Assembly: GCF_003660165.1 (NCBI RefSeq)
Contig: NZ_CP032829.1
Span: 806,001-870,000 of the forward strand
Direction of reading: 5' to 3'
DNA from: Sphingomonas paeninsulae
GTDB taxonomy: Bacteria; Pseudomonadota; Alphaproteobacteria; Sphingomonadales; Sphingomonadaceae
DNA: 64,000 bases
The position numbers and the translations under genes were made by a program. Shown piece after piece: positions 12,596 to 27,726 of this stretch. The notes below the pieces were generated by a model. The model saw only the letters and a list, made by a program, of their open reading frames with translations. It made no database searches and was not told the DNA's origin. Position 1 is the first letter of the stretch, and the number at the start of each line of letters is the position of its first letter.

Positions 12596-12697
12596 GAGTT
12601 ACCTGCCCCACTCCCCCATGCTCGGAAAAGGCCGTCAGAGCGATACCAAACGACGAAGTTCCCGCAAAACTTCCGTTTTCATTGGTCATATGCGGAT

Positions 12698-12742
12698 TTT
12701 AGATTGACATTGATTACGCATACAACCGATAGTGAGCGAATA
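12698..12742 (+). promoter_or_regulatory. promoter of the TonB receptor with shared TACGCATACAA element
   Basis: TTTAGA (12698-12703), a 17-base spacer and TACAAC (12721-12726) form one -35/-10 pair. TTGACA (12704-12709) with GATAGT (12728-12733) is an alternative. ATTACGCA (12713-12720) abuts the TACAAC box. The same arrangement recurs at 24852-24880, and a variant on the minus strand at 22961-22934. Confidence 0.6.
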
Positions 12743-12762
12743 ATAATAAGGGGAGAGGGAAT

Positions 12763-15305
12763 ATGTCCGTTCGAATTTTGCGCGCCACCCAATGGTTGGC
12801 GCTCGCTACAAGCAGCCTCACAATGGCAACTGTTGCCCTGGCCCAAGAGGCTGCGCCTCCGGTTAACTCCGGCCTCGATGAAATCGTTGTGACGGCACAA
12901 AAACGCGCACAGAATTTGCAGGATGTGCCGATCGCCATCAGCGCCATCAGTGCGGAAAAAATCGCCCAGCTTGGGATCCATGATTCCCGCGATCTGAGTG
13001 GCCTGGCACCCAATGTCACCATCGTGCAGGGAACGACGAGCAATAGCGCAGCGGTATTCTCGATCCGGGGCATTTCCAACGGCGGAAGTGAGAGTTTCGG
13101 CGTCGATTCCGCCAACGGCCTATATATCGACGGCGTTTATATCGCCCGTTCCGGCGCAGCTGGCATGGACGTCATGGATGTCGAGCGTGTCGAAGTCTTG
13201 CGGGGCCCGCAGGGCACGTTGTTCGGTCGCAACACCACGGGCGGCGCCATTCATTTCATATCGCGCGCACCCAGCCCTACGTTTCAGCTCAAAGCCGAAA
13301 CCGGGTATGGCAATTTCGACGCCTGGAACGGCAAGATTACGCTCGATCCAGGTAAGATCGCAGGTATCTCCACGAGCTTTTCCTACAGCCATCGCCAACG
13401 TGACGGCGTTGTCGATAATATTTTACAGCCTCAGGATTCGAAAGACCCGGGCGCTCTCAAATCAGACTCTTTCCGCATAGCGGCGCGGACGGAACTGGGT
13501 GGCACCGGCAGCATCCAATATATATTCGACTGGAGCCGGGTCAACGGCACGCCGATGCCTTTCCAGTTGACCAACACGGCCAACGGCGCGCCTCTGGCCC
13601 CGATAAATGTGAACGGCCAGCAAGTCGTATCGGTACAGCAAGCTCCGGTTGCCCAGTATCTCGCTGCCGCGACTTTCCTGAACCCGGCATGCGCGGCACT
13701 GGCCGTGCCCACGCGCGTCTATCGGGATAAAGTGTGTAACAACATACTCAGCACGGCCCGCGACCAGACATGGGGCCACAATCTGCAAATAGAAAACGAC
13801 TTTGGCATCTTTAAAGTTAAGTCCACCACCGGCTATCGCTTCTGGAACAGCAGTAGCACTAACGATCTCGACGGCATCGGCAGTTTCAGTGGACCGGCTT
13901 TTTCCAGCGCTTCGCTGTTTAACGGCATGCCCGTATCGCTACTGCAATTCATCCCCTCCATTCCTGCAGCGGCGCGGGCTAGCATCGCCGCCGCTCCCGT
14001 TCCCACAGTCGTCCAGGATCTGTTCGACACTAACAATCGGCGGAAACACAAACAGTTCAGCCAGGAAATCGAGTTTTCCGGTAGTGGCGATTCGCTCGAC
14101 TGGGTCGTGGGTGGTTTCTACTTCTGGGAGAAAGGATCGGAATATAATCCGCAAAGCAGCGGCTTCATTCTCGACACTAACAGCACCTTTCTCTCCAGTT
14201 TCGGTGCCTTGGGACCCAGCTTTGTCGCCGCCAATCCGGCCCGCTACCGGCTCGTGCCGACACTGGCGATACTCAATTACACGGCAACCAGCGAAAGCAC
14301 CGCTGTATATGGGCAATTCACATACTATCCCGGCGGCCATGCCAGCGGCATCCGCCTGACAGCCGGCGGACGCTATACATGGGATCAGAAGCGGCTATTC
14401 CGCCAACAGAACGGACCCGCGCCGCTTGCCATACCCGAAACCGGCAGCGCAGGATTCCAGAAATTCACCTGGAACCTGATGGCCGGTTATAATGTTGCCG
14501 AGGGCATTAATCTCTATGCCCGTGCGGCGACCGGTTACCGGTCAGGGGGTTCAACTCGCAGGATCCGGTCATTCCGGGCACCCACACCTTGGCGAGTTTC
14601 AAGCCGGAAACCGTGACCTCCTATGAGATCGGGGTGAAAACCGAACTATTCGACCGTCGCCTGCGCGTGAACATTGCGGGCTATCACAACATATACAAGA
14701 ATCTGGCCGTCAATATTCCCCGCACCGATGCACCGGCTGGCACTTTCGCCACGCAGATCGGTAACGCGGGAAGGGTTAACTATACCGGCGTCGAAATGGA
14801 CATGCAGGCCATTTTGACCGACAATTTTTCGGTCGACGGCAATATCGGCTATGTCGACGTGAAATATAAGCAATTCCTTGCCGGCCAGTCTCCGACGGCT
14901 GGGGCGCCACCAGTCAACATCGCCTCGATCGTCACGCCGGGCTATACCTCGCCGCTTACGGCCAATGCTGCAATCAATGCTCAATTCCCGTTAAACCGGG
15001 GTAACGCCCGGCTTATCGGTCGTGTTGGCTATACGCACGAGGATGGCAAATACAGTTTTTCCAGCATCAATTCGGCACCGTTCAACGAAGCGTTGAAGGG
15101 TGACAATCGGGACACTATCGACGCGCAGTTAGGCGTCGACCGCATCTCCATTGGCGGTGCCGAGGGCGAAATTCGTTTCTGGGCAAAGAACCTAACCAAC
15201 GCGAAGGATTTCGTTCGCGGTGTCGATTTTGGCCAACTCGGATTTGCAGGCGGCTACTTCGCCGAACCGCGGACCTACGGAGTAACGGTAGGCGCGAAAT
15301 TCTGA
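12763..15305 (+). pseudogene. TonB-dependent receptor, single-base frameshift
   Basis: Outer-membrane active transporter for large or scarce substrates. It has a signal peptide ending near AQEAAPP, a TonB box DEIVVTAQKR, a plug domain (SIRGISNGG, RVEVLRGPQGTLFGRN) and a 22-strand-type barrel ending in TYGVTVGAKF. The frame breaks at the G5 run 14545-14549: upstream reads YARAATGYRSGG, and one base later the sequence resumes as FNSQDP ... LASFKPETVTSYEIGVKTEL. Adding one G gives an uninterrupted 847-aa protein of normal length. A strong GGGGAGAGGGA site precedes the ATG. It heads the accessory catabolic block and probably imports its substrate, which is unknown. Confidence 0.85.
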
Positions 15306-15320
15306 CACTCGGGTTCGAAA

Positions 15321-15359
15321 TATGGCCTAATCCCATCAGGGGTTAGGCCATACTTTTTT
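15321..15359 (+). terminator. intrinsic terminator after the TonB receptor
   Basis: A 14-bp stem (15321-15334 with 15339-15352, TATGGCCTAATCCC and its complement with one G-T pair), a 4-nt loop and TTTTTT at 15354-15359. Confidence 0.85.
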
Positions 15360-15433
15360 CGCTTCGGGCGATCGCAGCCCATACGCCGCAGCGGGATCTG
15401 ACCTATCGCATTATCAAAACGCTTGAAACGGCG

Positions 15434-17557
15434 TCAGGCGGATAGTTTCGCCACTGACTTTGCACCGCCCCTGATCGCCCCCTCGATGTAAGTGACGCCA
15501 AGGCAGTCACCGACCGTCTCAACCTGAAACCCCTCTGCGCGCAAGCTGTCGGCGAGAGACGTATCGCCCCGCGCGCCCATTGCGACAATCACATGATCCG
15601 CCCGCGCATCGTGCGACGCGCCATCTGCAGCGCTGAACGATACCGCCTCGGGTCCGATCGCAATGTCTCTTGCACCGGCATGCAGAGCCACACCATGTTC
15701 CTTCAGTTCCGACACCAGACGCATCCGCCGGACCAGCAGCAATCCCTTGCCCACTCGGGGGCCGGGTTCCACAACAGTCACATGACGACCGCGCTCGTGC
15801 AGAAATTCAGCCAGTTCCAGACCAACCAGTTCACCGCCGATAATCACGATACGCTTGCCAAGGGGCATCCATTTCCGGCTGGCCGCGCGAACGAATTCCA
15901 GATTACTCGTAAGACCCGTAGCCGCGCCCAATCGAGTGGCCACGCGCGTCGCCAACCCCAGCTTTCGCGTCAAAGCGCCCGAGGTCTCGCCCATAAGCAT
16001 ATTGCGCATATCGTCGCCGCTGAAAACATGGGCCTGATCGCTGCCCGAAATGTCGGGCATATCCCGTCGCGCGCCGGTCGCGACAATGATGGCATCGGGT
16101 GCAAGGACGCGAAGCATGTCAGGCGTAGCGTCCGTATTGAGCCGCACATCGACCCCGGACCGCTGGGTGCGGGCTGCGAGCCAAACGAGCAGATCTTCGT
16201 TCGGAGGATAGGCAAGTGCAGCGAAACGCAGCGTCCCGCCCAAACGATTGCCTTTCTCGATCAGGGTGACGGTATTGCCTGCCTCCGCCATTCGACAGGC
16301 GGCCTCCATGCCGCCCGGACCGCCCCCGATAACCACGATGCGCATTCCCGTGCGCACGGGCGGCACACGCTCGCATTCAAAGCCTGTTTCGGGATTAACC
16401 GCACAGCGCAGCGGCTCTCGCGTGTAAGCCGCGCTGACACAGGTGTAGCAATAGATGCATGGCCGTACTGTATCCGCCATGCCCGCCGCTAACTTGTTCG
16501 GCAGCGCGGGATCGGCCAGCAATTTGCGGCCCATCGCGAGGAAATCATAATCACCAGCACCGATATGCGTATTGGCCGCCTTCGCCTCGACACGCCCCGA
16601 CGCAATAATCGGGAGCGCTACAGCCGATTTGAACGCACGGGCGGCAGCGATATTGGTTTCCGGCACATGCGGAATATTCGAGCCGGAATGCAGCTTTCCC
16701 ATACCGACATTGTGATAAGACGTAACGGTGATGGCATCGACACCCGCCGCTTCGACCAGACGCGCGGTTTCGATCGCCACGTCGAGGGTAATGCCGCCGT
16801 CCTTGCCGATCTCACGCGCGTCAAGCTTGCACCAGACAGGGAAATCGGAACCGACCTCAGCGCGTATCGCCCCGATCACTTCGAGCAGGAGGCGCGCGCG
16901 GTTTTCCAGCGGACCGCCGTAGCGATCGGTTCGGCTGTTCGTCTTGGGCGACAGAAAGGACGATAGCAGATAGCCATGCCCGGAATGGATTTCGACACCA
17001 TCGAATCCCGCCTGCTTGGCGCGCCGCGCGCCCGCTGCAAATTGCGACACGACAATAGCGATGTCCGCCTCGTCCATCACCTTGATCCGGGGCATCTTAC
17101 CGCCAGCAAAGGAAGCCATTTCTTCGGGCAAAAAATAGCTCAGAAAATCACCTTGCATCGGTGGTGGCAAGCAGGGCGCCCAGATCATCTCATCGAAAGC
17201 ATCGCCGGAATAGCCGGCCACCAGCCCGCCATGATGCAATTGCGCTGCGATTTTCGTGCCGTGGCGGTGCACCCGCTCGGCAAGCGCCCGCAGGCCGGGC
17301 AGGAAGCGATCGTGAGAAATGGCGCTCTGATTGGGTTGAACCGCGCCCGTCGGCCAGGCGACACCCGCAACGCCAGAAATAATAAGCCCCGCCCCGCCCC
17401 GGGCCTGCTCTTCATGATAGGCGATCAGCCGTTCGCCACACTGGCCATCCGGCTCGGACAGGCTGACCCCCATGGCCGTAACAAAGATGCGGTTACGCAC
17501 ATCGAGTGTTCCGATCCGACCCGGCGCGAGTAGATGCGCATAGTCATCGTTCGCCAT
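15434..17557 (-). CDS. NADH:flavin oxidoreductase with Fe-S and FAD domains (2,4-dienoyl-CoA/enoate reductase type)
   Basis: A 707-aa enzyme of the FadH/BaiCD class. An N-terminal FMN TIM barrel (about 1-350) carries the paired histidines in FDGVEIHSGHGYLLSSFLSP. Cysteines for a 4Fe-4S cluster follow (RPCIYCYTCV ... LRCAVNP). The C-terminal FAD/NAD domain has GGGPGGMEAACRMAEAG and a second nucleotide fold (IVIIGGELVGLELAEFL). Such enzymes reduce C=C bonds conjugated to carbonyl or CoA thioester groups, or act on cyclic enones; the substrate here is unknown. AAGGA lies before the ATG. It follows the OYE gene by 34 bases, so two ene-reductases share one transcript. Confidence 0.88.
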   Translation of the reverse strand: MANDDYAHLLAPGRIGTLDVRNRIFVTAMGVSLSEPDGQCGERLIAYHEEQARGGAGLIISGVAGVAWPTGAVQPNQSAISHDRFLPGLRALAERVHRHGTKIAAQLHHGGLVAGYSGDAFDEMIWAPCLPPPMQGDFLSYFLPEEMASFAGGKMPRIKVMDEADIAIVVSQFAAGARRAKQAGFDGVEIHSGHGYLLSSFLSPKTNSRTDRYGGPLENRARLLLEVIGAIRAEVGSDFPVWCKLDAREIGKDGGITLDVAIETARLVEAAGVDAITVTSYHNVGMGKLHSGSNIPHVPETNIAAARAFKSAVALPIIASGRVEAKAANTHIGAGDYDFLAMGRKLLADPALPNKLAAGMADTVRPCIYCYTCVSAAYTREPLRCAVNPETGFECERVPPVRTGMRIVVIGGGPGGMEAACRMAEAGNTVTLIEKGNRLGGTLRFAALAYPPNEDLLVWLAARTQRSGVDVRLNTDATPDMLRVLAPDAIIVATGARRDMPDISGSDQAHVFSGDDMRNMLMGETSGALTRKLGLATRVATRLGAATGLTSNLEFVRAASRKWMPLGKRIVIIGGELVGLELAEFLHERGRHVTVVEPGPRVGKGLLLVRRMRLVSELKEHGVALHAGARDIAIGPEAVSFSAADGASHDARADHVIVAMGARGDTSLADSLRAEGFQVETVGDCLGVTYIEGAIRGGAKSVAKLSA

Positions 17558-17591
17558 CAGACATCATTCCTTATGTCATTGCCGCCACGCG

Positions 17592-18670
17592 TCATGCCGA
17601 GGCACTCGCCACAAGGGGAGGGTAATCGATATACCCCCTCTCCTCACCCGCATAGAGCAGGGAGAAATCGGGTTTTGCCAGCGGCGCGTTGTCGCGAAGC
17701 CTTTCAACAAGATCGGGATTGGCAATAAAGGCCCGGCCGAAACTGACGGCATCCGCCCTGTCCTGCTCGAGCAGCCTTCGAGCCGAATCGGACTTCAGAT
17801 TGTTGTTGGCGATTATCGGGCCCGACCAGCGCCCCCGCAGCATTTTCAGGATCGGCAGGTCAGGAATCTGCATATCGACAAGATGCAGATAGGCCAGTCC
17901 CAGACCGTCAACCGCCTGAACGAACGGGAGAAACGTATCGACGGGGTTGGCCGGGTCCATGCCGTTATAGGGGTTGCCCGGCGAGATACGGAACCCGACG
18001 CGATCCGCACCGATTGCGGCTGACATGGCCTCCAATACCTGAACTGGAAAGCGGATCCGGTTTTGCACTCCGCCGCCATAATCATCGTCGCGCGCGTTAC
18101 TGATGGGATTGAGAAACTGGTTGATCAGATAACCGCTGGCACAATGCAGTTCTACGCCGTCCATCCCTGCGTCCATGGCATTTCTGGCTGCGGTCGCAAA
18201 ATCATCGATCAGTGCCGGGATTTCGCTCCTCGGAATGGCGCGGGGCATGGCCGTGGGTGCCGGCACACCATCCGGACCGGGGACTTTTTCCGGACAGGAA
18301 ATCGCAGACGGCGCGATGATATCCGCTTCGAATCCCCGATTGGCTGGCACGACCACACGGCCACAGTGCATGAGTTGCATGACTATTCGCCCCCGCGCTT
18401 GTGAACGGCGCTCGTTACGGCCCGCCAACCCTCGATCTGCGCCTCACTATGGATACCCGGTGTGCGCCAATAACCCTTACCCGCTGGTGTCGGCTGCACA
18501 CCCTCCGTCACGAGCAAACCGGCGGTGGCGCGCTGTCGATAATAATCCACCATCAGCGAGGTTGGAATGTCGTCATCCCCTGCGCGACCACGAGTCATCG
18601 GCGCCATAACGATCCGATTGGAAAGCGCTATTCCACCAAGAAGTGTGGGGACAAATAAAGGATCAACCAC
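17592..18670 (-). pseudogene. alkene reductase of the old yellow enzyme family (NemA-like), single-base frameshift
   Basis: FMN-dependent ene-reductase acting on alpha,beta-unsaturated carbonyls. The N-terminal part reads LFVPTLLGGIALSNRIVMAP and ends HKRGG. The downstream frame reads RIVMQLMHCGRVVVPANRG, then MDGVELHCASGYLINQFL with the substrate residues, and YIDYPPLV at the end. The break is in the C5 run 18390-18394 (G5 in the gene); one more base joins the halves into 359 aa, the usual length. I took the GTG at 18670 (product VVDPLFVPTLL) as start; a TTG at 18682 is also possible. The gene is divergent from the SDR at 18754. Confidence 0.83.
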
Positions 18671-18694
18671 GTAGTTCGCTTTCAATATGGACCG

Positions 18695-18742
18695 TTGACC
18701 GGTGTTTGCGTCGTAAACTATACCTTTGGATACGCAATTCAA
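18695..18742 (+). promoter_or_regulatory. promoter and TACGCA-type element ahead of the SDR at 18754
   Basis: TTGACC (18695-18700), 17 bases, CTATAC (18718-18723). The spacer holds TTTGCGTCGTAA, and GATACGCAATTCAA lies at 18729-18742, a variant of the element found at other promoters of this block. The same gap must also serve the divergent OYE operon. Confidence 0.5.
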
Positions 18743-18753
18743 GGATGATGCGC

Positions 18754-19503
18754 ATGAATTATGGTTTTGAAGGACGGGTCGCGCTGGTGACCGGAGCGGG
18801 CGGCGGAATCGGTCGCGCCACAGCGATCGCCTTCGCTGCATCGGGAGCATCGGTTGTTGTATCTGACATCGCTGAGGAAGGAGGACGGGAAACCGTCGAA
18901 CTCATCGTAAAAGCTGGCGGCCGCGCACTTTTTCAACGGTGCAATGTTGCTGACCCGGAAGATGTAAAGGCGTTGATCAATCACACGATCACTGAATTTG
19001 GCGCTCTCGACTTCGCCCATAATAACGCGGGCATCAACAGTCCGACGGCCAACGAATATGAGGACGACGTCTGGGCACGCAGCCTGTCGATCAACCTGTC
19101 AGGCATCATGTATTGTATGCGCGAGGAAGCAGAGGCGATGCTCAAGCGCGGCAAGGGTGCCATCGTCAACACCGCTTCCATCAACGGGCTTGTCGGCAAC
19201 GGCGCACAACCTGCCTATGTTGCGGCCAAGCATGGCGTGGTTGGCCTTACTCGTCACGGCGCGCTGCGCTGGGCCAAAAATGGCATTCGCGTCAACGCCG
19301 TGTGCCCCGGCGTTATCGAAACTCCGATGACAGCACCGCTCACATCAAACCCAGAAATGCGCAAGGTTCTGGATGGCATGACTCCGATGGGTCGCATGGG
19401 TCAACCCGAAGAAATCGCCGCAGCGGTGCTCTGGCTTTGCTCCGATCAGGCCAGTTTCGTTACTGGCCATCCTCTGGTCGTCGACGGCGGTGCCACCGCC
19501 TGA
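18754..19503 (+). CDS. classical short-chain dehydrogenase/reductase
   Basis: A 249-aa NAD(P)-dependent oxidoreductase of the FabG-like classical SDR class. Cofactor loop TGAGGGIGRATA near residue 13, acidic VVSDIA after beta-2 (suggesting NAD preference), NNAGIN, catalytic Ser in NTASINGL and YVAAKHGVVG with the Tyr/Lys pair, then CPGVIETPM and the C-terminal VDGGATA. The start ATG 18754 is preferred because AAGGA lies eight bases upstream. Probably an alcohol/ketone interconversion in the catabolic block; the substrate is unknown. Confidence 0.88.
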   Translation: MNYGFEGRVALVTGAGGGIGRATAIAFAASGASVVVSDIAEEGGRETVELIVKAGGRALFQRCNVADPEDVKALINHTITEFGALDFAHNNAGINSPTANEYEDDVWARSLSINLSGIMYCMREEAEAMLKRGKGAIVNTASINGLVGNGAQPAYVAAKHGVVGLTRHGALRWAKNGIRVNAVCPGVIETPMTAPLTSNPEMRKVLDGMTPMGRMGQPEEIAAAVLWLCSDQASFVTGHPLVVDGGATA

Positions 19504-19524
19504 ACGACGAGGTGGCACCGCATT

Positions 19525-19559
19525 CTACGGGGTGGTCCTGATCGGGACCGCCCCCGTAG
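19525..19559. terminator. hairpin between convergent SDR and Lrp genes
   Basis: CTACGGGG (19525-19532) pairs with CCCCGTAG (19552-19559), and the inner GGTCC pairs with GGACC. It lacks a T-tract on either strand, so it is a weak or factor-assisted terminator shared by convergent genes. Confidence 0.45.
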
Positions 19560-19626
19560 CACGCCATCAAACTGCAACTGGAAATCGCCGATAGGCACGG
19601 GGTTTGCAGAATTGTTATTCTACACA

Positions 19627-20124
19627 TCAAGCCAGGTTGGGCGCGCCCTCCGTGGTCACCAAGTCCGTGATGCGCACGATCCGCGGATTATATTTGACGG
19701 TTTTAACTGCGATCGAGGTTTCGATATGGTGGACACCCGGCAACGATAATATCTGTTCCGACGCCAGTTCATGCAATTGATCGAGATCGTCGAACAGGCA
19801 AATGGTCAGAATATTGAATCGGCCCATGGTAATCATCACCGCCTTCACCATCGGCAATTCAGAAATCTTCTGCCCGATCTCACGCGCATTCTGAATTTCC
19901 GCCTGAACACCGACAAAAGCGAGCTTGGCGGAATTGGCGAGCCCGAGGCTGGTGATCGCGGTAAAAGCGATCATTCCATCCTGCTGCAGCCGCTTGATCC
20001 GTCCGCGCACCGTCCCTTCGGTGACTTTAAGATCAGCCGCTATCTTGCGGTTCGACACGCGCGCGTCACGCGCCAATATTTCGATTAACTGCCTGTCGAG
20101 TTCATCAAGTTGCGGCGTGCTCAT
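19627..20124 (-). CDS. Lrp/AsnC family transcriptional regulator (second of a tandem pair)
   Basis: A 165-aa regulator. The N-terminal winged HTH (LDELDRQLIEILARDARVSN, then VTEGTVRGRIKRLQQDG) is followed by an AsnC/RAM ligand-binding domain (AFVGVQAEIQNAREIGQKI ... FNILTICLFDD). Family members form dimers to octamers and sense amino acids or related small molecules. The ATG at 20124 starts one base after the stop of the neighbouring Lrp gene, so the two are translated together. The pair is a candidate regulator of the surrounding block; this is inferred from position only. Confidence 0.87.
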   Translation of the reverse strand: MSTPQLDELDRQLIEILARDARVSNRKIAADLKVTEGTVRGRIKRLQQDGMIAFTAITSLGLANSAKLAFVGVQAEIQNAREIGQKISELPMVKAVMITMGRFNILTICLFDDLDQLHELASEQILSLPGVHHIETSIAVKTVKYNPRIVRITDLVTTEGAPNLA

Positions 20125-20125
20125 A

Positions 20126-20599
20126 TCATTCCCTCGCCTCGATCGGCGCCACATCAAAGTGGTATTTGAGGACATCGAGCGCAATCGCCGGAGTAATCGA
20201 GCGGATACCGCGCACGTTCGCGAATTTGGCCGACATGAGATTCGACAGTTCGTCAAAATCACGCAGCACGACCAACAGGTCGATGTCGTAACGTCCCGTG
20301 ACCAGATGTGCAGCGAACACTTCCGGAAAAGCTGCCAGTTCCTCGGCCACTTCGGATGCCGGTCGCCCCTTCACTTCTATCACCATCTGCATGAGCACAT
20401 TATAACCATGCGCCGCAAAGTCCGACACCGCGACCACACGCAGCTTATTGGCATCCTCCAGGCGGCGAATGCGTGCCGAAACGGTCGCCGCCGTCAGGTC
20501 GAGCATGTCGGCAATCTGCTGATTGGTCGCTCGCCCGTTGGCCCGCAGAAGCTCTACGATCTTCCAATCGACGTTATCGACGGCGAAACGATCACCCAT
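20126..20599 (-). CDS. Lrp/AsnC family transcriptional regulator (first of a tandem pair)
   Basis: A 157-aa regulator with N-terminal HTH (NVDWKIVELLRANGRATNQQ, then LTAATVSARIRRLEDAN) and a RAM domain (VLMQMVIEVKGRPASEVAEE ... YDIDLLVVLRDFDEL). It is clearly diverged from its partner downstream, so the two could form hetero-oligomers or sense different ligands. The ATG at 20599 (MGDRFAVDNVDWK) is chosen as the family-typical start. The upstream gap 20600-20823 holds no other gene that I can see. Confidence 0.87.
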   Translation of the reverse strand: MGDRFAVDNVDWKIVELLRANGRATNQQIADMLDLTAATVSARIRRLEDANKLRVVAVSDFAAHGYNVLMQMVIEVKGRPASEVAEELAAFPEVFAAHLVTGRYDIDLLVVLRDFDELSNLMSAKFANVRGIRSITPAIALDVLKYHFDVAPIEARE

Positions 20600-20823
20600 G
20601 CGTTTACCTGATCCCTTGTTAGTTGGCACCTGCCCCCCTGTTCTAATAAAGGTCAACTGGAATGTGCATCACGCCCCCGCACAGTCGACGACGTTGCGGA
20701 CGCACCGAGTTCGTGTCCCATCATCGCGAGACTAAAGCCAACTTGTAGCGCGGATAGCGATGGTCACCGACCGACGCAAAGCGGATTATCGGAACATCCG
20801 GTTCGGGGACCGAAAGCACCGCC

Positions 20824-22125
20824 TCATCCCGCCGCGGCCGTGGAGCGCACCCGCACACTCAATGCTTCGTCCAGCGCATCCAGCGCCGCCCGGCCCCGCT
20901 CCACCTTTATGCTTGCCAGCCATCCAAACAGCGCGGCCAGAAATCCGAACGGAATGACGACGCTGAGCGCAATCCGAAGCGAATGAATATCGTTGCCGAG
21001 CGACTCGCTGATTACGCCAACCGCCCATGGTCCGACACAAAAGCCGATCAGAGTCGTTACCGACAGGAACAGGGCCGTTGCGCCCGCACGGATGCGACCG
21101 GGCAATATATATTGCAGCGTCGCCAGGAAACCGACCGACCACCCGCCACCCAACAGGCCGGCGGGAATGGCGAGCAATCGGGCAACAGCAAAGCTGTCGG
21201 CCCAGGTCGCAACGAGGATCGCCATCGTCGCGGCACCCACCGCAATGGCGGAAAGCCGTGCTGGCCAGACCATGCCCCGACGCGACATCCGGTCGGAAAT
21301 GGCTCCGAACGAGAGCATACCGATTATACCCGACAGCCCGAAATTTACCGCAAACGTCGTTTTGGCAACCACCGGATCAAGCCCGTAACTGCGCGCAAAC
21401 AACTCCGGCCCCCAATAGCCGAAAGCGACGCCCGACAACGCTCCACAGGCAAAGGCCAGCATCATCCATACATAAGCCGGCGTGGCACCGAGCGCCCGCA
21501 CCAGCGCCATGAACGGCATGGCTACGCCCGTGCGTCCACCAGACGAAACGCGCTCCGGCTCGCGGATCACAAGCAAAGCCACGATCGCCAGCACCACGCC
21601 GATGCCACCCATGAGATAAAATGCGCTGCGCCATTCGAAATGCGCAGCAATGGCGGGTCCACCGCCCTGACCTGCGATCTGACCAATATAAGTCGCAAGC
21701 CCCAAGATCGCGAAAGCCATGCCCCGACGTTCGGCACGAAAATAGTCGGACAGCAGCGAATAAGCTGGCGCAACAAAAGCCGCTTCACCGACCCCAACTC
21801 CGACCCGCGCCAATGACAAGTCCAAAAGACTGGTCGCCAGTCCCGTCGCTGCGGTCGCGCAACTCCAGAGCAAGCAGCCTATGGCGATGATCCGAACGCG
21901 CGACCACCGATCCGCCAGTCGGGCGAATGGAACGCCGAGCACCACATAAAGCAGCACGAAAGCCGGCCCCATCAACAGGCCCATCGTTCCGTCGCCAACG
22001 CCGAATTCAGCCTTGATCGGCCCGACCAGTCCCGTGATCAGATAACGGTCGGCAAAGCTGAAAATATAGATAAACAACAGCGTCGCGAGAACGACCCAGG
22101 GATTGGAAGCGCGGGTCATGGGCAT
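20824..22125 (-). CDS. MFS transporter, spinster-like
   Basis: A 433-aa permease with 12 hydrophobic helices. The motif after helix 2 is GVPFARLADRWSRVRII (MFS motif A variant), and the N-terminal YIFSFADRYLITGLVGPIK resembles spinster-type carriers common in sphingomonad catabolic islands. It likely imports or exports a substrate or intermediate across the inner membrane. AGGAGG lies just before; the ATGs at 22125 and 22119 are both possible, 22119 having the better spacing. It is downstream of the SDR at 22134 in one operon, the SDR stop being eight bases away. Confidence 0.87.
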   Translation of the reverse strand: MPMTRASNPWVVLATLLFIYIFSFADRYLITGLVGPIKAEFGVGDGTMGLLMGPAFVLLYVVLGVPFARLADRWSRVRIIAIGCLLWSCATAATGLATSLLDLSLARVGVGVGEAAFVAPAYSLLSDYFRAERRGMAFAILGLATYIGQIAGQGGGPAIAAHFEWRSAFYLMGGIGVVLAIVALLVIREPERVSSGGRTGVAMPFMALVRALGATPAYVWMMLAFACGALSGVAFGYWGPELFARSYGLDPVVAKTTFAVNFGLSGIIGMLSFGAISDRMSRRGMVWPARLSAIAVGAATMAILVATWADSFAVARLLAIPAGLLGGGWSVGFLATLQYILPGRIRAGATALFLSVTTLIGFCVGPWAVGVISESLGNDIHSLRIALSVVIPFGFLAALFGWLASIKVERGRAALDALDEALSVRVRSTAAAG

Positions 22126-22133
22126 TTACCTCC

Positions 22134-22892
22134 TCAATCGCGAAACAGCGATCCGCCATTGACGTGCCACAACTGGCCATTGACCCACGCGCTGTCTTCC
22201 GACGCCAGAAAGGCGACAGCCGCCGCGATATCCTCTGGCTGGCCGAGCCGCCGATGAGGCACGGTGCGCAGCATTGAGGTGACATATTCGTCGGTCAGAT
22301 GCTCCGCCACTGCCTCGGTCAGGACCACGCCCGGACAAATGCCGTTGGCGCGAATGCCCTTCTTGCCGTATTTGCGCGCAACGTGGCGGACAAGGGCGTG
22401 AACCGCGTTCTTTGTCATTGGATAGGCAACCTGCAACGGATTGCCTCCGATCGCCGCACCGGAAGACGTATAGATCATCGCTCCGCCACCGCTCTCGATC
22501 AGCACGGGCAAGGCGGCCTGGGTCGCGAGGAAATGGCTCTTGGCGTTAATCGCGAAGGATCGATCCAGCACTTCTTCGGTGCAATTCAGCACGTCGATGT
22601 CACCTTCTGTCCCGCCCGCAAGGTTGGAATGATAGAAGTTGAGCGCACCGAACTCGTCGATCGCCATTGCCACGATGGCAGCCTGCGATGCTGCTTTGGT
22701 TCCATCAAGATGCACGCCAACCGCCTTGCCACCGCCACCACGGATGGCGGCGGCCGTATCAACCGCCCATTGTTCGACGATATCGCCAATGACGACGCTC
22801 GCACCTTCCTCAGCAAGACGCCGCGCTGTCGCGGCACCGATGCCTCGTCCGCCGCCCGCCACCACGCCTACCTTGCCAGCTAATCCGCGCAC
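22134..22892 (-). CDS. classical short-chain dehydrogenase/reductase
   Basis: A 252-aa SDR. Cofactor loop GGGRGIGAATARRL, acidic VVIGDIVEQW (NAD-type), catalytic Ser in YTSSGAAIG and AYPMTKNAV with Tyr/Lys, C-terminal HVNGGSLF. The usual NNAG is replaced by SNLAGG, which changes the structural Asn segment. The start is the GTG at 22892, six bases after GGAG; the upstream TTG at 22904 would itself contain that ribosome site. First gene of an operon with the MFS transporter. Confidence 0.85.
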   Translation of the reverse strand: MRGLAGKVGVVAGGGRGIGAATARRLAEEGASVVIGDIVEQWAVDTAAAIRGGGGKAVGVHLDGTKAASQAAIVAMAIDEFGALNFYHSNLAGGTEGDIDVLNCTEEVLDRSFAINAKSHFLATQAALPVLIESGGGAMIYTSSGAAIGGNPLQVAYPMTKNAVHALVRHVARKYGKKGIRANGICPGVVLTEAVAEHLTDEYVTSMLRTVPHRRLGQPEDIAAAVAFLASEDSAWVNGQLWHVNGGSLFRD

Positions 22893-22908
22893 TTCCGTCT
22901 CCAATGCA

Positions 22909-22985
22909 ATTTATGCGTTATTTTCTAGAATTATTTATACGCGTTACACGGGCGTATTCAAGTTAATACTTTTGATTTGCGTAAT
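22909..22985 (-). promoter_or_regulatory. promoter of the SDR-MFS operon with three TACGC-type elements
   Basis: Leftward: TTGAAT (22961-22956), 16 bases, TATAAA (22939-22934). TAACGCG (22946-22940) abuts the -10, as in the TonB and 24974 promoters. Further copies are AATAACGCATAA (22922-22911) and ATTACGCAA (22985-22977), one on each side of the promoter, which would suit cooperative repressor binding. Confidence 0.6.
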
Positions 22986-23009
22986 CCACGTCCGTCGTCG
23001 GAAAGTCGA

Positions 23010-24530
23010 TCAGAGTATCGGCCGCCGATCCTTCCAGGGCGCAGCTTTCTCCAGTTGGCCCGCCAGACGAAACAGCGTCGCTTCGTCGCCGTAACGCCCC
23101 ATGAACATCACGCCGATGGGCAGCCCCGTGCTCGACATGCTGAGCGGCACCGACATGGCCGGCTGGCCGGTCATATTGGCAAGCTGGGTGAAGGGAGAGA
23201 AGGTCGCCGCGCGCTCGCCCCAATGCATGAAATCAGTATCGGGTGAGAGGTTGATCCGCCCGATCGCGAGCGGCGGCGCACCGAGCGTGGGCGACAGGAT
23301 TACGTCGTAGTTCGCCATGAACCGCGCCACCGCCAGCGCTGCGGTCTGAAGCGTGTTATTGGCGCGGGCAAAATCCATTCCCGTGGTTTTCTGCCCATAG
23401 GCGACGAAGTCCCGCGTGATCTGTTCCAGCACATCGGGTCCGATCGCCACACCCGTAGCTTTCGCACGGTCGAGCATATCGGCAGCGACCGACGACGCGA
23501 TCAGCACGAAGCTGGCCCCACCCAGCGCAGCCGCATCGATTGGCGGCGCAGCTTCCTCAACATGATGCCCAAGGCTTTCGCACAGCCGCGCCGCCGCCCG
23601 CGCAGCTTCGACACATTCCGGATCGATCGGGCTACCCGTCGCAGATTTCAACATCAGCGCCACGCGCAACCGCTGCGGCGCTTTCGTCACCTGCGACAGA
23701 AAACTCTCGCCGGGCGTCGGCGCCGCATAACGGCTACCCAGTTCCGGCCCCTGCGTCGCATCAAGGATAGCCGCCGAATCGCGCACGCTGCGAGATACGG
23801 CATGATGAACCGACAGACCCGCCCAGCCCTCGGTACGCGGTGGCCCCATTGGCACACGCCCCCGACTCGGCTTCAAGCCAAAAAGTCCGCAACAGGATGC
23901 CGGAATACGGATGGAGCCTCCGCCATCTGTGGCGTGAGCCGCGGGCAGCACACCCGCTGCCACCGCCGCCGCCGCTCCGCCCGACGATCCGCCGGTGGTA
24001 TGAGCCGGGTTCCACGGGTTGCGGGTATCACCGGTCAGTTTATTCTCGGTCGTGCCTGTCAGGCCCAGTTCGGGCACTGTGGTCTTGCCAAAAACGACAA
24101 AACCCGCCCGCTCGATCCGGTTGACCAATTCCGATGTAACATCGGGCCGGTAGCCCTTGAAGAAACGGCTACCATTTTCGGTAGGCAGACCCGCGATATA
24201 GGTATTGAGATCCTTCAGCAGCCAGGGAGCGCCGGTAAACGGCCCCTGTGGCAGACCTTTGGCGATCGCCGCCCGACCATAAGCATAATGCCTCTGGGCA
24301 ATGAAGTTGAAACGCGGGTTGAGCGCCTCCGCTCGGGCGATCGCGCGGTCCAGCAACTCCGTTGGCGACACCTGTCGCTTGCGGACCAGTTCGGCGAGCC
24401 CCAGCGCATCATGGCTATCGAGCGGATCGGCGGCCTTTACCGCCGCGCCAGTCGAAATATTCGCCATGCCCAGCGCCGCCGCGCCACTCGCCACAATCTC
24501 GCGGCGAGTCATGCCCCTGCCTTCGCCCAT
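23010..24530 (-). CDS. amidase signature family hydrolase with Tat-type signal
   Basis: A 506-aa amidase. The Ser-cisSer-Lys triad regions are visible: Lys in PWLLKDLNTY, GGSSGGAAAAVAAG, and DGGGSIRIPASCCGLFGLKPS. The N-terminus carries a twin-arginine motif followed by a hydrophobic stretch (MTRREIVASGAAALGMANI), so export is likely. It hydrolyses an amide or possibly an ester; NylA-type cyclic amide hydrolases are similar in layout. I chose ATG 24530 (AGGAG six bases upstream); ATG 24512, which overlaps the stop of a preceding small ORF as ATGA, is an alternative. No partner gene follows in the same direction. Confidence 0.87.
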   Translation of the reverse strand: MGEGRGMTRREIVASGAAALGMANISTGAAVKAADPLDSHDALGLAELVRKRQVSPTELLDRAIARAEALNPRFNFIAQRHYAYGRAAIAKGLPQGPFTGAPWLLKDLNTYIAGLPTENGSRFFKGYRPDVTSELVNRIERAGFVVFGKTTVPELGLTGTTENKLTGDTRNPWNPAHTTGGSSGGAAAAVAAGVLPAAHATDGGGSIRIPASCCGLFGLKPSRGRVPMGPPRTEGWAGLSVHHAVSRSVRDSAAILDATQGPELGSRYAAPTPGESFLSQVTKAPQRLRVALMLKSATGSPIDPECVEAARAAARLCESLGHHVEEAAPPIDAAALGGASFVLIASSVAADMLDRAKATGVAIGPDVLEQITRDFVAYGQKTTGMDFARANNTLQTAALAVARFMANYDVILSPTLGAPPLAIGRINLSPDTDFMHWGERAATFSPFTQLANMTGQPAMSVPLSMSSTGLPIGVMFMGRYGDEATLFRLAGQLEKAAPWKDRRPIL

Positions 24531-24625
24531 ATCCTGCTCCTCAGCCCTGCGCATAATAGCGCGAAAAAGCGTGTGCGGAATTGCGGGGTCAGCCCAGTGA
24601 CAGGAGCCACATTCGCTTCAGACAT
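24509..24625 (-). CDS. 38-aa ORF upstream of and overlapping the amidase
   Basis: An ATG at 24625 with GGAGAGGG four bases upstream begins MSEANVAPVTGLTPQFRT and ends WAKAGA. Its TGA overlaps an in-frame amidase ATG (24512) as ATGA. The ribosome site is better than the amidase's own. It may be a leader peptide that couples translation, or the true N-terminal end of a small coexpressed protein. I recognise no family. Confidence 0.4.
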   Translation of the reverse strand: MSEANVAPVTGLTPQFRTRFFALLCAGLRSRIWAKAGA

Positions 24626-24973
24626 TTGACCCTCTCCGATTCAACGCATCATTTTTATTGATTGGACGATATTACACTATTTGCGAAATTCAAGCTTATT
24701 TTGATTACGCATTATTCAGAAAAAACGCCTTTTATACCAACAAGCGCGAAAAATATGATCATTGACCTCTTTCATTGCTTGCTACTGCACACCCCGGCCA
24801 GCGTCGCGATCAAAACTGGCGACAATCATCACTCACCCGATATATTCGTAATTTACATGCCTTTAAGATACGCATACAATCAGTATCAACAGGTCGCGCA
24901 TGTTGATTGCGTTTTGACCGGAAAAATATGTCGGACACATAAATCAAGACATTATTAAAGGATCGGATTGCTG
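24626..24973. promoter_or_regulatory. AT-rich divergent control region, amidase / SDR
   Basis: This 348-base gap has no convincing gene. On the plus strand TTTACA (24852-24857), 17 bases and TACAAT (24875-24880) form a near-consensus promoter for the SDR at 24974, with GATACGCA (24867-24874) directly ahead of the -10. ATTACGCATT lies at 24704-24713 on the amidase side. The block from TACGCATACAA onward matches the TonB promoter almost base for base. Confidence 0.6.
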
Positions 24974-25747
24974 ATGAGTCAGGATTTTTCAGGCCAGGTC
25001 GCCATCGTCACAGGTGGTAGCGACGGCATCGGCCTCGCGACCGCCGCACTGCTCGTGCGCCGTGGCGCGCAGGTTGTCATTTGCGGACGTCGACAGGAAC
25101 AGCTCGATAAAGCGCTGGCCCGAATCGCGAGCGAAGGCGGCAAGGCAGAAGCGATCCAGCTCGACGTCTCGGACGATGTGGCCTTTACCGCGATGGTCGA
25201 GGGCGTCGGTCAGAAATATGGCCGTCTCGACATGATGGTCAATAATGCCATGTCCGCTCACTATGCTCCGATTTCCCAGCTAACGCTGGAACAGTGGCGC
25301 AAGGATTTCACGGTCAATGCCGACGCTGTCTTCGTCGGCACCAAGGCCGCGATGAAAGTCATGGCGGCGGCCGGCAAGGGAGCCATCGTCAATATTTCTT
25401 CGACCTGCGGCATTCGCGCGACCCCCAACATGTCGAGCTATTCTGCGTCAAAGGCTGCGCTTATCCAGTTCACAGCCGTCGCCGCGATGGAAGGTGCCCG
25501 GTTAGGCATCCGTGTCAACGCCATCGTACCGGGTCAGGTGCAAACCGCCGGAACGGAAGATTTTGCCGCTCGCGCGCCGGAAATCGCGGGCAAGACGATG
25601 GACGCCATCCCCATGGGCCGTGGCGGTCGCCCGGAGGAGTTGGCAGAAGCCATCGTCTTTATGCTTTCCGACGCCGCAAGCTATATTACCGGCGCGGCGC
25701 TGCCCGTCGATGGTGGCAAGGCGGCGCAGCTTTACATGCCGGGCTGA
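24974..25747 (+). CDS. classical short-chain dehydrogenase/reductase
   Basis: A 257-aa SDR. TGGSDGIGLATAALL cofactor loop, CGRRQEQ after beta-2 (basic residues suggest NADP preference), NNAMSAHY in place of NNAG, catalytic NISSTCG and SSYSASKAAL, then VPGQVQTAG and a C-terminal PVDGGKAAQLY. The ATG at 24974 is chosen as family-typical; an in-frame TTG precedes it. It is followed 71 bases later by another SDR in the same direction, so the two probably act on consecutive intermediates. Confidence 0.87.
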   Translation: MSQDFSGQVAIVTGGSDGIGLATAALLVRRGAQVVICGRRQEQLDKALARIASEGGKAEAIQLDVSDDVAFTAMVEGVGQKYGRLDMMVNNAMSAHYAPISQLTLEQWRKDFTVNADAVFVGTKAAMKVMAAAGKGAIVNISSTCGIRATPNMSSYSASKAALIQFTAVAAMEGARLGIRVNAIVPGQVQTAGTEDFAARAPEIAGKTMDAIPMGRGGRPEELAEAIVFMLSDAASYITGAALPVDGGKAAQLYMPG

Positions 25748-25818
25748 CACCGCCTTGATCGGCGCAAAAAAATAAAGCGTGCGCCAAAGGTGACACGCCA
25801 AATAATTGAGGAGAATGA

Positions 25819-26634
25819 ATGATGGCAGGACGTCTGGACGGCCGCGCGGCGATCGTGACCGGCGCGGGGCGCGGCATCGGTCGCGCCATAGTCGAACGGC
25901 TGGTGGCAGAGGGCGCGCAGGTCGCCGCGCTGGACCTCAATCCGGGTGAGGTTGAAACCCTTTCCGGCGTGCTGCCGATCGCCTGCAACGTCGCCGACTC
26001 TGCATCGGTGGCAAAAGCGATCGCCGTCGCGCGAGAAAGCTTCGGCCGACTCGACATAGCGGTCAATAACGCCGGCATCGGCCGTGCGGCCGGTGACGGG
26101 TCGGACGAATTTTACGGCGCAATGGCCGCTCGAGAAGCCGAGGTCGCAGAGAAAGGCAGTTCCACCATCTTCGTGGATCAGTTGATTCACATGGAGGACG
26201 ATGGCTGGGCGGGCGTCATGGCCGTCAACCTCAACGGCACCTTCTATGTCTGTCGCGAATTTGCCCGCCAGCAGGCGAGGGACGGCCGTGCAGGCGCAAT
26301 CATCAATGTCAGTTCGACCAGCGCACAGTCGGGCGAAGGAAGCACCCATTACGTCGCCAGCAAGGCGGCGGTAATCGGCCTCACGCGGCAGTTGGCGCGC
26401 GAGTTGGCACCCCGCAAGATCCGGGTCAACGCCATCGCCCCCGGCCCTACCGACACCCCGATCATGCAGGGCATTCCCGATGCGTGGATCAAGTCGATGG
26501 AACAGTCCGTGCCACTGGGTCGAATGGCCGACCCGGCCGAAATCGCCGCGGCCGTCGCCTTTTTGGCCAGCGACGACGCCAGCTTCGTCAATGGCTCCGT
26601 CCTCGCAGTTAACGGTGCCAGTTACTATATCTGA
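25819..26634 (+). CDS. classical short-chain dehydrogenase/reductase with an internal insertion
   Basis: A 271-aa SDR with TGAGRGIGRAIVERL, ALDLNPGE (acidic, NAD-type), NNAGIGRA, catalytic VSSTSAQSG and THYVASKAAV, PGPTDTPIM and C-terminal VNGASYYI. Between NNAG and the alpha-5 helix it carries about 25-30 extra residues (GDGSDEFYGAM ... STIFVDQLIHMEDD), which would sit over the substrate pocket. GAGGAG lies six bases before the ATG at 25819; ATG 25822 is the alternative. Confidence 0.87.
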   Translation: MMAGRLDGRAAIVTGAGRGIGRAIVERLVAEGAQVAALDLNPGEVETLSGVLPIACNVADSASVAKAIAVARESFGRLDIAVNNAGIGRAAGDGSDEFYGAMAAREAEVAEKGSSTIFVDQLIHMEDDGWAGVMAVNLNGTFYVCREFARQQARDGRAGAIINVSSTSAQSGEGSTHYVASKAAVIGLTRQLARELAPRKIRVNAIAPGPTDTPIMQGIPDAWIKSMEQSVPLGRMADPAEIAAAVAFLASDDASFVNGSVLAVNGASYYI

Positions 26635-26640
26635 ACGGGT

Positions 26641-26660
26641 CGGGAGGCAAAAGCCTCCCG
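26641..26660. terminator. hairpin between convergent SDR and SnoaL-like genes
   Basis: CGGGAGGC-AAAA-GCCTCCCG, an 8-bp perfect stem. There is no T-tract, but its placement between two convergent stops fits a bidirectional stop signal. Confidence 0.5.
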
Positions 26661-26675
26661 GTCCATCCTTGCGGC

Positions 26676-27326
26676 TTACTCCGCCCGCACCTTGACCTTC
26701 GGTGCCGCCGCACCCCGTCGCATGGCGTTCAGGAACCCCTCCAGTGGCGCAGGCTCGGCGACCGGGCCACCGTGATCGTCGGCACGCGCCCAGAACTCGG
26801 CATAACTCGGGAAAAGCTTGTGGAAGTTTCCCGCTACCCACTCAGTATCAGGCCAGCGCATCTTGCGCTCGCCAATGGGCGGCTTGTTCAGGTCGGTCGC
26901 GTACCAATACAGCGGCAGCCGTCGCGCGAAATACCAGCGCAGGCCGTCCGGTCCGGCGGCACGGACATAATCATCCACGTACATCATCTGCATGATGACC
27001 CATTCGTCGCCGGTTTCATGCTCGTTCTTGGAATAGACTATTCCATGAGCATGGTCCGGATCGTCGAATTCGATCACATGCCCGCCAATGTGATGGGACG
27101 TGCCGGTAAAGGGCGAACGCAGGGTCCCGTCCATATAACTCCGTAGCGCCATGCGGCCCGACGCGTCTCGACCGACGCGCACATCGTCCGGAAAAAGCGA
27201 AACCATCGCGTCCATGTCCCGCATGTCGAGCGCCAGCGCATATTTGGCTGGCAATTGCCGGATTGCATCAAGCGATTCCAGGCGATCCACGCGCGCAAGC
27301 AGCGTTTCCGATTCTACAGGCCCCAT
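26676..27326 (-). CDS. SnoaL/NTF2-like family protein
   Basis: A 216-aa protein of the NTF2-like cone fold. RLESLDAIRQLPAKYALALD begins the first helix, followed by DMDAMVSLFPDDVRV and the strand region TSHHIGGHVIEFDD. Bacterial relatives include SnoaL-type isomerases, scytalone-dehydratase-like enzymes and ring-hydroxylase small subunits; no catalytic assignment can be made from this alone. Its place beside four SDRs and two ene-reductases fits a dehydratase or isomerase in the same pathway. The start ATG 27326 has AAAGG four to five bases upstream. Confidence 0.75.
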   Translation of the reverse strand: MGPVESETLLARVDRLESLDAIRQLPAKYALALDMRDMDAMVSLFPDDVRVGRDASGRMALRSYMDGTLRSPFTGTSHHIGGHVIEFDDPDHAHGIVYSKNEHETGDEWVIMQMMYVDDYVRAAGPDGLRWYFARRLPLYWYATDLNKPPIGERKMRWPDTEWVAGNFHKLFPSYAEFWARADDHGGPVAEPAPLEGFLNAMRRGAAAPKVKVRAE

Positions 27327-27423
27327 GTGCCTTTTCTCCCAAAATAATATACCCGTTCCGCCATATGCGGAACATTGATAGCCGCACCCCTTGATACAAC
27401 AAGAATTATAACCGCACAAATTC

Positions 27424-27465
27424 TCAATACGCGTAATATTATATAACTATTATTACGCATGATCG
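27424..27465. promoter_or_regulatory. paired TACGCG/TACGCA elements upstream of the SnoaL-like gene
   Basis: ATTACGCGTATTGA on the minus strand (27437-27424) and ATTACGCATGATCG on the plus strand (27452-27465), in opposite orientation. A TATAAT also occurs leftward at 27410-27405. This is the right-hand limit of the element family in the window. Confidence 0.5.
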
Positions 27466-27629
27466 GCGTATCGAAGCAAACTCTCCGCGCCCTGCTGAAC
27501 GGCCACGCCAGCCAGTCTGCCAAAGTGGAAGTTCGCTTTGAAAAAACGTTCGGCATAAGGGCCGATACGTTGACGCGGGTGCAAACTGCATATGGACTTA
27601 CACAAGCACACGCGCATGAAGATAACTAA
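27459..27629 (+). pseudogene. remnant of a HigA-type antitoxin (C-terminal half)
   Basis: A 56-codon frame reading MIGVSKQTLRALLNGHASQS, then VRFEKTFGIRADTLTRVQTAYGL and a TAA. This is the recognition helix and downstream part of XRE/HigA antitoxins (family pattern 'xVxxxTLxxLLNGxxxxS ... RLxKAFGxxxxxWLxxQxxYDL'). The first helices of the HTH and any HigB toxin gene are absent upstream, where AT-rich promoter DNA lies instead. No ribosome site is visible. It is best read as a decayed toxin-antitoxin fragment marking an old insertion or deletion boundary. Confidence 0.6.
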
Positions 27630-27726
27630 AGGTGGAACGTATCGCAAAGGCAGCCTGATCGACAGGCACCGCGCGCAAAATCGCGCGCATGGCCGGTTTG
27701 ATTGATTGAGCTAGGAGGGCTACATT

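What the first reader, a model, noticed from the sequence alone, without database searches (positions are those of the whole stretch)
12698..27465. A shared promoter element ties the 12.7-27.5 kb block into one putative regulon
Nine copies of an (A/G)(T/A)(T/A)ACGC(A/G) element lie in the gaps of this block: 12713, 18729, 22946 (-), 22922 (-), 22985 (-), 24704, 24867, 27437 (-), 27452. In three clear promoters the element abuts the -10 hexamer: TTTAGA-N17-TACAAC (TonB), TTTACA-N17-TACAAT (SDR 24974), TTGAAT-N16-TATAAA (SDR 22892). The stretch TACGCATACAA is identical at 12715 and 24869. The core ACGCGT copies are palindromic, as expected for a dimeric regulator. ATTACGC also occurs by chance inside some genes, so the extended form matters.
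Basis: partly seen in the sequence, partly recalled or inferred. Interest (0 to 1): 0.75.

Follow-up and report, generated by a model that had tools for sequence, protein, structure and literature searches.

The report
Shared operator of bile-steroid degradation genes
Six copies of a 30-base mirror-image DNA site sit before a block of bile-steroid degradation genes in a sphingomonad bacterium, and the site's close tie to a pair of neighbouring Lrp-type regulator genes gives a testable answer to how such bacteria may switch on steroid degradation.

Summary
A sequence model built only from relatives finds seven places at E<=10 in the 3.99-Mb genome: five in this block, two in a second steroid locus that has its own tandem Lrp pair. 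In 34 related loci a 23-bp arm spacing dominates (70 pairs against at most 8). The block looks like a bile-steroid catabolic cluster; its amidase is 82% identical to one in strain Chol11. In 397 family genomes the exact operator goes with LrpB homologs (36 of 48 LrpB+, 9 of 349 LrpB-; 24 of 24 genomes with two or more operators are LrpB+). In relatives operators precede KshA-type, extradiol dioxygenase, CoA-ligase, SDR and TonB genes. They overlap putative core promoters, which fits repression. Best reading: the operator of a tandem LrpA/LrpB steroid regulator. Binding, ligand and sign are inferred.

The parts
12691..12720 (+). Operator O1, before the TonB-dependent receptor; TTGACA lies inside it
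18707..18736 (+). Operator O2, between the divergent OYE2 and SDR1 genes; covers the putative -10 of SDR1 (TTGACC at 18695, -10 near 18718)
   Evidence: not among the E<=10 places
22914..22943 (-). Operator O3, before SDR2 (same-strand run SDR2-MFS-LrpB-LrpA)
   Evidence: E 4.9, weakest of the block's five hits there
22978..22984 (-).
24682..24711 (-). Operator O4, before the amidase
   Evidence: E 1.8
24845..24874 (+). Operator O5, before SDR3
27430..27459 (-). Operator O6, before the SnoaL-like gene
   Evidence: best hit in the genome, E 0.008
20126..20599 (-). LrpB, Lrp/AsnC-family regulator
   Evidence: Pfam (longer ORF to 20656); family searches; HTH alignment
19627..20124 (-). LrpA, Lrp/AsnC-family regulator
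   Evidence: Pfam (longer ORF to 20262), NCBIfam; family search; HTH alignment
12763..15305 (+). TonB-dependent receptor, split over two frames
15434..17557 (-). OYE1, FMN/FAD oxidoreductase; best NCBIfam match is BaiCD, below that family's cut-off
17592..18607 (-). OYE2, FMN oxidoreductase, split over two frames
18754..19503 (+). SDR1; start at 18754 inferred from the starts of relatives (the gene caller took the in-frame 18745)
20824..22125 (-). MFS transporter
22134..22892 (-). SDR2; start at 22892 by analogy with relatives (caller took 22865); 7alpha-hydroxysteroid dehydrogenase models are among its top matches, below cut-off
23010..24554 (-). Amidase; best relative is in Novosphingobium sp. 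Chol11, 82% identical
24974..25747 (+). SDR3
25819..26634 (+). SDR4
26676..27326 (-). SnoaL-like protein (fold class of bile-acid 7-dehydratases, recalled; only weak matches to solved structures)

Best explanation
The element is the operator of a steroid (bile-salt) degradation regulon, read by the products of the tandem genes lrpA and lrpB. Shown by sequence: six copies of wTGCGTAr-N16-yTACGCAw in the block's gaps; few equally good copies elsewhere in the genome, two of them in a second steroid locus with its own Lrp pair; tight co-occurrence with the Lrp pair and with KshA across the family; overlap with putative core promoters. Inferred: each arm (a quasi-palindrome TTGCGTAA) is gripped by one Lrp-type dimer, and two dimers about two helical turns apart form one complex. 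Without substrate the complex covers the -35/-10/start region and represses. A steroid or steroid-CoA intermediate bound by the Lrp ligand domains relieves repression of uptake (TonB, MFS), deconjugation (amidase) and ring-modifying enzymes (SDRs, OYEs, SnoaL). Because LrpB and LrpA lie on one strand with SDR2-MFS behind O3, the pair may also control itself. The confidence is for 'operator read by the Lrp pair'; repression is somewhat less sure.
For: Relatives-only PWM: the six operators are the six best hits in the window plus 400 kb. Whole-genome model search: 5 of the 7 places at E<=10 are in this block, the other 2 in the second steroid locus (150 of 174 first-look candidates were scored), where L216 has a second tandem Lrp pair. 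Spacing in 34 relatives' loci: 70 pairs at 23 bp against at most 8 at any other of 7-60 bp (arms >=12/14), 31 against 3 (>=13/14), 88 against 20 (>=11/14). Exact arms in gaps of 49 loci: 38 pairs at one offset, at most 2 at any other. 81 of 88 sites are in gaps. Operator and LrpB: 36 of 48 LrpB+ and 9 of 349 LrpB-; the reversed control pattern is not associated (8 of 48 and 36 of 349, P 0.22); 24 of 24 genomes with two or more operators are LrpB+. LrpB is in 43 of 45 genomes with KshA_C below 1e-50 (cut-off chosen after seeing the table). Operator 84-103 bp before an LrpA homolog with little else of the cluster in L160, L162, L163, L164, all one genus. HTH segments near-invariant in LrpA and in LrpB. 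Promoter overlap by eye: TTGAC inside the operator at 13 of 14 TonB promoters, TTGACC upstream with the -10 region inside at 9 of 11 SDR1 promoters, TTGAA upstream at 7 of 8 SDR2 promoters.
Against: No binding, expression or ligand data. The operator follows steroid genes as closely as it follows Lrp (36 of 45 KshA+ and 9 of 352 others), so phyletic association alone cannot name the binder. Genomes are related, so Fisher P values overstate. 12 of 48 LrpB+ genomes have no exact operator (two of these, G319 and G230, have inexact ones in their Lrp loci). 3 of 34 Lrp loci (L158, L159, L165) show no site at >=11/14. O2 misses the E<=10 list. At 10/14 the 23-bp spacing does not stand out in the window, and an 11/14 match lies outside the block at 7961 (PWM 3.2 bits). 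At two mismatches the own-genome search is background (97 matches, 148 for the reversed control).
Confidence: 0.75

Rival explanations
1. The operator is real but is read by another regulator of the steroid regulon, for example the AraC-type protein beside an operator in the second steroid locus; the Lrp pair does something else.
For: AraC gene L218:18369-19211 starts about 160 bp from an operator; the operator follows KshA as closely as LrpB. AraC regulators are proposed for bile-salt clusters in PMC12882949 (section 20 read).
Against: No homolog of that AraC protein at E<=1e-15 in 16 of the 36 operator+/LrpB+ genomes, several with 3-4 exact operators (counted by hand). AraC proteins read direct repeats (as PMC12882949 puts it), and this is an inverted repeat. 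In four loci of one genus the operator sits before an LrpA homolog with little else of the cluster. Other regulators were not tested this way.
Confidence: 0.15
2. The Lrp pair reads the sites, but as activator or DNA-wrapping sites, not as repressor operators (overlaps with the best explanation except for the sign).
For: Lrp-family proteins can bind clusters of sites and wrap DNA (PMC2995911 and PMC10201364, passages). A few operator pairs lie 62-64 bp apart (L144, L148, L156).
Against: Operators sit at the -35, at the -10, or from the -10 onward in different promoters; activators usually need a more uniform upstream position (general knowledge). Promoters were assigned by eye.
Confidence: 0.2
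3. Chance clustering of an 8-mer in AT-rich gaps, with no regulator.
For: The loose 8-mer is common; its window-wide count is near expectation.
Against: Six copies of a 30-bp relatives-derived motif rank first in 464 kb; fixed 23-bp spacing in relatives; 0 of 400 shuffles for the tighter 8-mer.
Confidence: 0.01

Closest known systems
Lrp/AsnC family regulators and their operators (E. coli Lrp and AsnC, archaeal BarR and FL11)
   Same: LrpA and LrpB carry AsnC-type HTH and Lrp/AsnC ligand domains. Literature: dimers take 13-17 bp sites, and neighbouring dimer sites lie two or three helical turns apart (PMC2995911, passages); the 23-bp arm spacing is near two turns.
   Different: Here two short, strongly conserved arms make a 30-bp inverted repeat with a nearly unconserved centre, repeated before many genes of a catabolic regulon. 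That review calls natural Lrp-type sites degenerate and hard to predict. The linked pathway is steroid, not amino-acid, metabolism.
Tandem Lrp/AsnC genes NCHOL11_RS15865 and NCHOL11_RS15860 of the Chol11 catabolic cluster (PMC12882949, passages and section 20 read)
   Same: Probably the orthologs: contig G371:C6 has the length of the Chol11 contig and carries LrpA and LrpB at 62%; gene order amidase-SDR2-MFS-LrpB-LrpA as in the window.
   Different: That section gives no operator for them and speaks of amino acid metabolism; here an operator is defined and tied to steroid genes.
KstR/KstR2, TetR repressors of actinobacterial sterol catabolism (PMC8399759, passages)
   Same: Works like it: a symmetric operator repeated before the genes of a steroid catabolic regulon, probably relieved by a pathway intermediate.
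   Different: Regulator family and operator differ; [quoted passage not shown]

Membership tests
Lrp/AsnC regulators (LrpA, LrpB) | AsnC-type HTH plus Lrp/AsnC ligand-binding domain | tested here: met
   Pfam PF13404 and PF01037 above cut-off in both; LrpB matches solved Lrp/AsnC proteins by sequence, best E 3.5e-18
Lrp/AsnC regulators (LrpA, LrpB) | Binds this operator | not testable with these tools
   Only co-occurrence and proximity
Lrp/AsnC operator | 13-17 bp imperfect inverted repeat per dimer with an AT-rich centre | tested here: inconclusive
   The conserved symmetric unit is 30 bp with arms 23 bp apart; each arm is at most an 8-bp quasi-palindrome; definition
Lrp/AsnC operator | Neighbouring dimer sites two or three helical turns apart | tested here: inconclusive
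   23 bp is about 2.2 turns; what sits on each arm is unknown
Steroid/bile-salt catabolic regulon | Operators precede steroid-catabolic genes | tested here: met
   KshA_C/Rieske (L142), BphC-type dioxygenase (L225, L149), FAD_binding_2 flavoprotein (L166, KstD type by inference), AMP-binding ligases (L152, L161, L228), TonB, SDR. 20 chosen neighbours scanned: 2 had no Pfam family; several have no clear steroid role (MucR, luciferase-like, DUF1214/1254, alkyl-sulfatase-like), and one (AraC, L226) does not have the operator at its 5' end
AraC-read operator (rival) | The AraC homolog is present wherever the operator is | tested here: not met
   No hit at E<=1e-15 in 16 of 36 operator+/LrpB+ genomes
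KstR-type (TetR) regulon | TetR regulator encoded in the block | tested here: not met
   No TetR domain among the block proteins scanned

The most novel reading that the evidence does not exclude
LrpA and LrpB form an obligate hetero-complex, one dimer per operator arm, that senses a steroid or steroid-CoA intermediate and is the general switch of bile-salt/steroid degradation in this family: a paired Lrp-type master regulator with a sharply defined 30-bp bipartite operator.
Probability: 0.4. Interest if true: 0.75.

Novelty: new variant of a known kind. Interest (0 to 1): 0.6.

Why it matters
[quoted passage not shown] A precise operator plus a candidate regulator pair makes the question directly testable, lets the regulon be predicted in sequenced members of the family, and speaks against a published guess that the Chol11 Lrp pair serves amino acid metabolism (PMC12882949). 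It would also be a case of Lrp-type regulators with predictable, non-degenerate sites.

Tried and rejected
Rejected: the 8-mer as the functional unit (its window-wide count is ordinary; pair spacing shows the larger unit). Rejected: ACGCGT as the dyad. Rejected: the AraC protein as the general reader. Taken as mostly chance: the nine operator+/LrpB- genomes, each with one exact site; the reversed control pattern turns up in 44 of 397 genomes (hand count). Led nowhere: a literature search for the arm sequences (839 papers, ten listed, none relevant by title) and for heteromeric Lrp (no paper). Searches listed few papers; of the papers I opened, only PMC12882949 names the Lrp pair. PMC12175502 (passages) and PMC5343134 (passages) have no mention of Lrp. 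Operator pairs about 63 bp apart are too few to claim. The own-genome control sample includes L021, which turned out to lie in the second steroid locus; at >=11/14 that 400-kb sample had 10 sites, 7 in CDS and 3 in gaps.
Full report
WHAT WAS CLAIMED. Nine copies of RWWACGCR in the gaps of 12.7-27.5 kb, tying the block into one regulon. All nine are there (two coordinates one base off), plus two more in the gaps. The loose 8-mer is unremarkable over the window (54 seen, mean 45 in shuffles, 11 of 100 shuffles at least as many). In the block's 11 gaps (2,207 bp) the tighter RWTACGCA occurs 6 times, against 11 times in 57,832 bp of other gaps, and in 0 of 400 dinucleotide shuffles as often; ATTACGCA leads the gap 8-mer list. 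ATTACGCA occurs 80 times in the 3.99-Mb genome, four times in this block.

WHAT THE ELEMENT IS. Relatives' loci showed pairs of arms 23 bp apart. The unit is a 30-bp inverted repeat, TGCGTAA-N16-TTACGCA. In the window: O1 12691-12720, O2 18707-18736, O3 22914-22943, O4 24682-24711, O5 24845-24874, O6 27430-27459, with 11 to 13 of 14 arm positions matching; one further 11/14 match lies outside the block at 7961 and scores only 3.2 bits. In 34 loci around LrpA homologs, arm pairs with >=12/14 matches number 70 at spacing 23 and at most 8 at any other spacing from 7 to 60; at >=13/14, 31 against 3; at >=11/14, 88 against 20. With exact hexamers in gaps of 49 fetched loci, 38 pairs lie at one offset and at most 2 at any other. 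81 of the 88 sites at >=11/14 are in gaps; 31 of the 34 loci have at least one, L158, L159 and L165 none. The same threshold gives 10 sites (7 CDS, 3 gap) in 400 kb of the window's own genome. A symmetrised logo of 80 non-redundant sites reads wwTGCGTAr with a nearly unconserved centre. The arms were selected for, so only the flanking W positions and the spacing are independent evidence.

A PWM from 68 sites of relatives, no own-genome site included, ranks O6, O1, O5, O4, O3, O2 (28.7 to 20.7 bits) as the six best hits in the window plus 400 kb of the same genome; the next are 20.1 (L021, second steroid locus), 16.2 (before a MucR-type gene, L010) and 13.5 (L021). A calibrated sequence model from 38 of those sites, run over the whole genome (150 of 174 first-look candidates scored), lists 12 strand hits at 7 places with E<=10: O6, O1, O5, O4, O3, and C3:1988165 and C3:2067657; O2 is missed. 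At up to one mismatch the pattern TGCGTA-N18-TACGCA has 17 places in the genome, five in this block and eight between 1.968 and 2.074 Mb (hand count; one of the eight, 2018519, lies in a called gene, and 1983188 scores low). At two mismatches the search is background (97 against 148 for the reversed control). The second region holds an amidohydrolase, an OYE, two SnoaL proteins, a FAD_binding_2 flavoprotein (KstD type by inference), an acyl-CoA-dehydrogenase-like protein, an alpha/beta hydrolase, two TonB receptors, an AraC regulator and a second tandem Lrp/AsnC pair, and both KshA_C matches of the genome.

WHAT THE BLOCK DOES. TonB receptor, two OYE-type oxidoreductases, four SDRs, MFS transporter, amidase, SnoaL-like protein and the tandem Lrp pair. 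The amidase's best relatives in a genome collection are in Novosphingobium sp. Chol11 (82%) and two other Novosphingobium (72%, 70%). Chol11 (now Sphingobium) is a bile-salt degrader with a bile acid amidase Bsa (PMC8399759, passages); that this amidase is Bsa's ortholog is my inference. In Chol11 the order amidase-SDR2-MFS-LrpB-LrpA is the same.

WHO READS IT. In 397 genomes of the family, LrpA homologs at E<=1e-25 occur in 36, LrpB homologs at E<=1e-15 in 48, and the exact operator in 45. Operator and LrpA: 31 of 36 LrpA+ and 14 of 361 LrpA-. Operator and LrpB: 36 of 48 LrpB+ and 9 of 349 LrpB-. Genomes with two or more operators: 24 of 24 LrpB+. The reversed control pattern shows no association (8 of 48 and 36 of 349) (lists copied by hand). 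Five operator+ genomes under the LrpA threshold (G139, G161, G168, G296, G383) have a diverged LrpB homolog, on an operator's own contig in three (G161, G168, G383). KshA_C matches below 1e-50 (a cut-off chosen after seeing the table; 65 genomes match at 1e-20) occur in 45 genomes, 43 of them LrpB+ and 36 operator+; the two KshA+ LrpB- genomes (G114, G380) have no exact operator. So operator, Lrp pair and steroid degradation travel together, and phyletic data alone cannot separate Lrp from another steroid regulator. Three things favour Lrp. In 26 of the 34 loci picked by LrpA, other cluster proteins lie within about 10 kb (two more have a TonB match only). In L160, L162, L163 and L164 (one genus) the operator stands 84-103 bp before an LrpA homolog with little else of the cluster. 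The best rival, an AraC protein beside an operator in the second locus, has no homolog at E<=1e-15 in 16 of 36 operator+/LrpB+ genomes. Recognition-helix segments are near-invariant within LrpA (TEGTVRxRIxRLQ) and within LrpB (TVSxRIxRxE) and differ from each other.

HOW IT PROBABLY WORKS. The operator overlaps putative core promoters at different registers: TTGAC in its centre at 13 of 14 TonB promoters; TTGACC just upstream, with the -10 region inside, at 9 of 11 SDR1 promoters; TTGAA upstream, with the -10 near the left arm, at 7 of 8 SDR2 promoters (rows chosen by me, near-identical ones left out; promoters assigned by eye). Operator start to called start codon is 46-49 bp at 7 of 8 SDR2 and 8 of 12 SDR1 sites. 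Repressor operators lie like this. Lrp dimers take 13-17 bp, and neighbouring dimers sit two or three turns apart (PMC2995911, passages); arms 23 bp apart fit two dimers, one per arm. Relief by a steroid intermediate is inference.

COMPARISON AND NOVELTY. It works like the KstR regulons of actinobacteria but is not one: no TetR protein was found in the block. PMC12882949 (passages and section 20) names two contiguous Lrp/AsnC genes in the Chol11 cluster, gives no operator for them there and speaks of amino acid metabolism. The review PMC8399759 (passages) says regulation is largely unknown in these bacteria. I found no printed operator, all limited to an open-licence library; the Chol11 proteome paper cited by that review did not appear in the listing. 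I rate the finding a new variant of a known kind.

Noticed in passing
12763-15305, 17592-18607, 27837-29242: Three genes in 16 kb (TonB receptor, OYE2, chloride channel) are each split over two frames; relatives carry single ORFs for the first two. Real decay or sequencing indels cannot be told apart here.
   Followed up: partly
L216:10146-11131 (G000:C3 about 1.9901-1.9911 Mb): A second, diverged tandem Lrp/AsnC pair in the same genome, about 2 kb from an exact operator, in a second steroid locus.
   Followed up: partly
L010:13374-13847; L222:9094-9558: A Ros/MucR-type regulator gene follows an operator in the window's genome and in another genus (G139), hinting that the regulon may reach MucR.
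   Followed up: no
27459-27630: Short ORF starting at O6's right arm that by eye resembles part of a HigA-type antitoxin; not tested (one search failed).
   Followed up: no
L144:5698/5762, L148:8276/8339, L156:10453/10515: Pairs of operators 62-64 bp apart, about six helical turns; too few to test.
   Followed up: partly
L024:11495-12423: In Novosphingobium sp. Fuku2-ISO-50 another, diverged pair of Lrp genes (31-35%) lies next to the amidase, besides the closer pair at 20815-21437.
   Followed up: no
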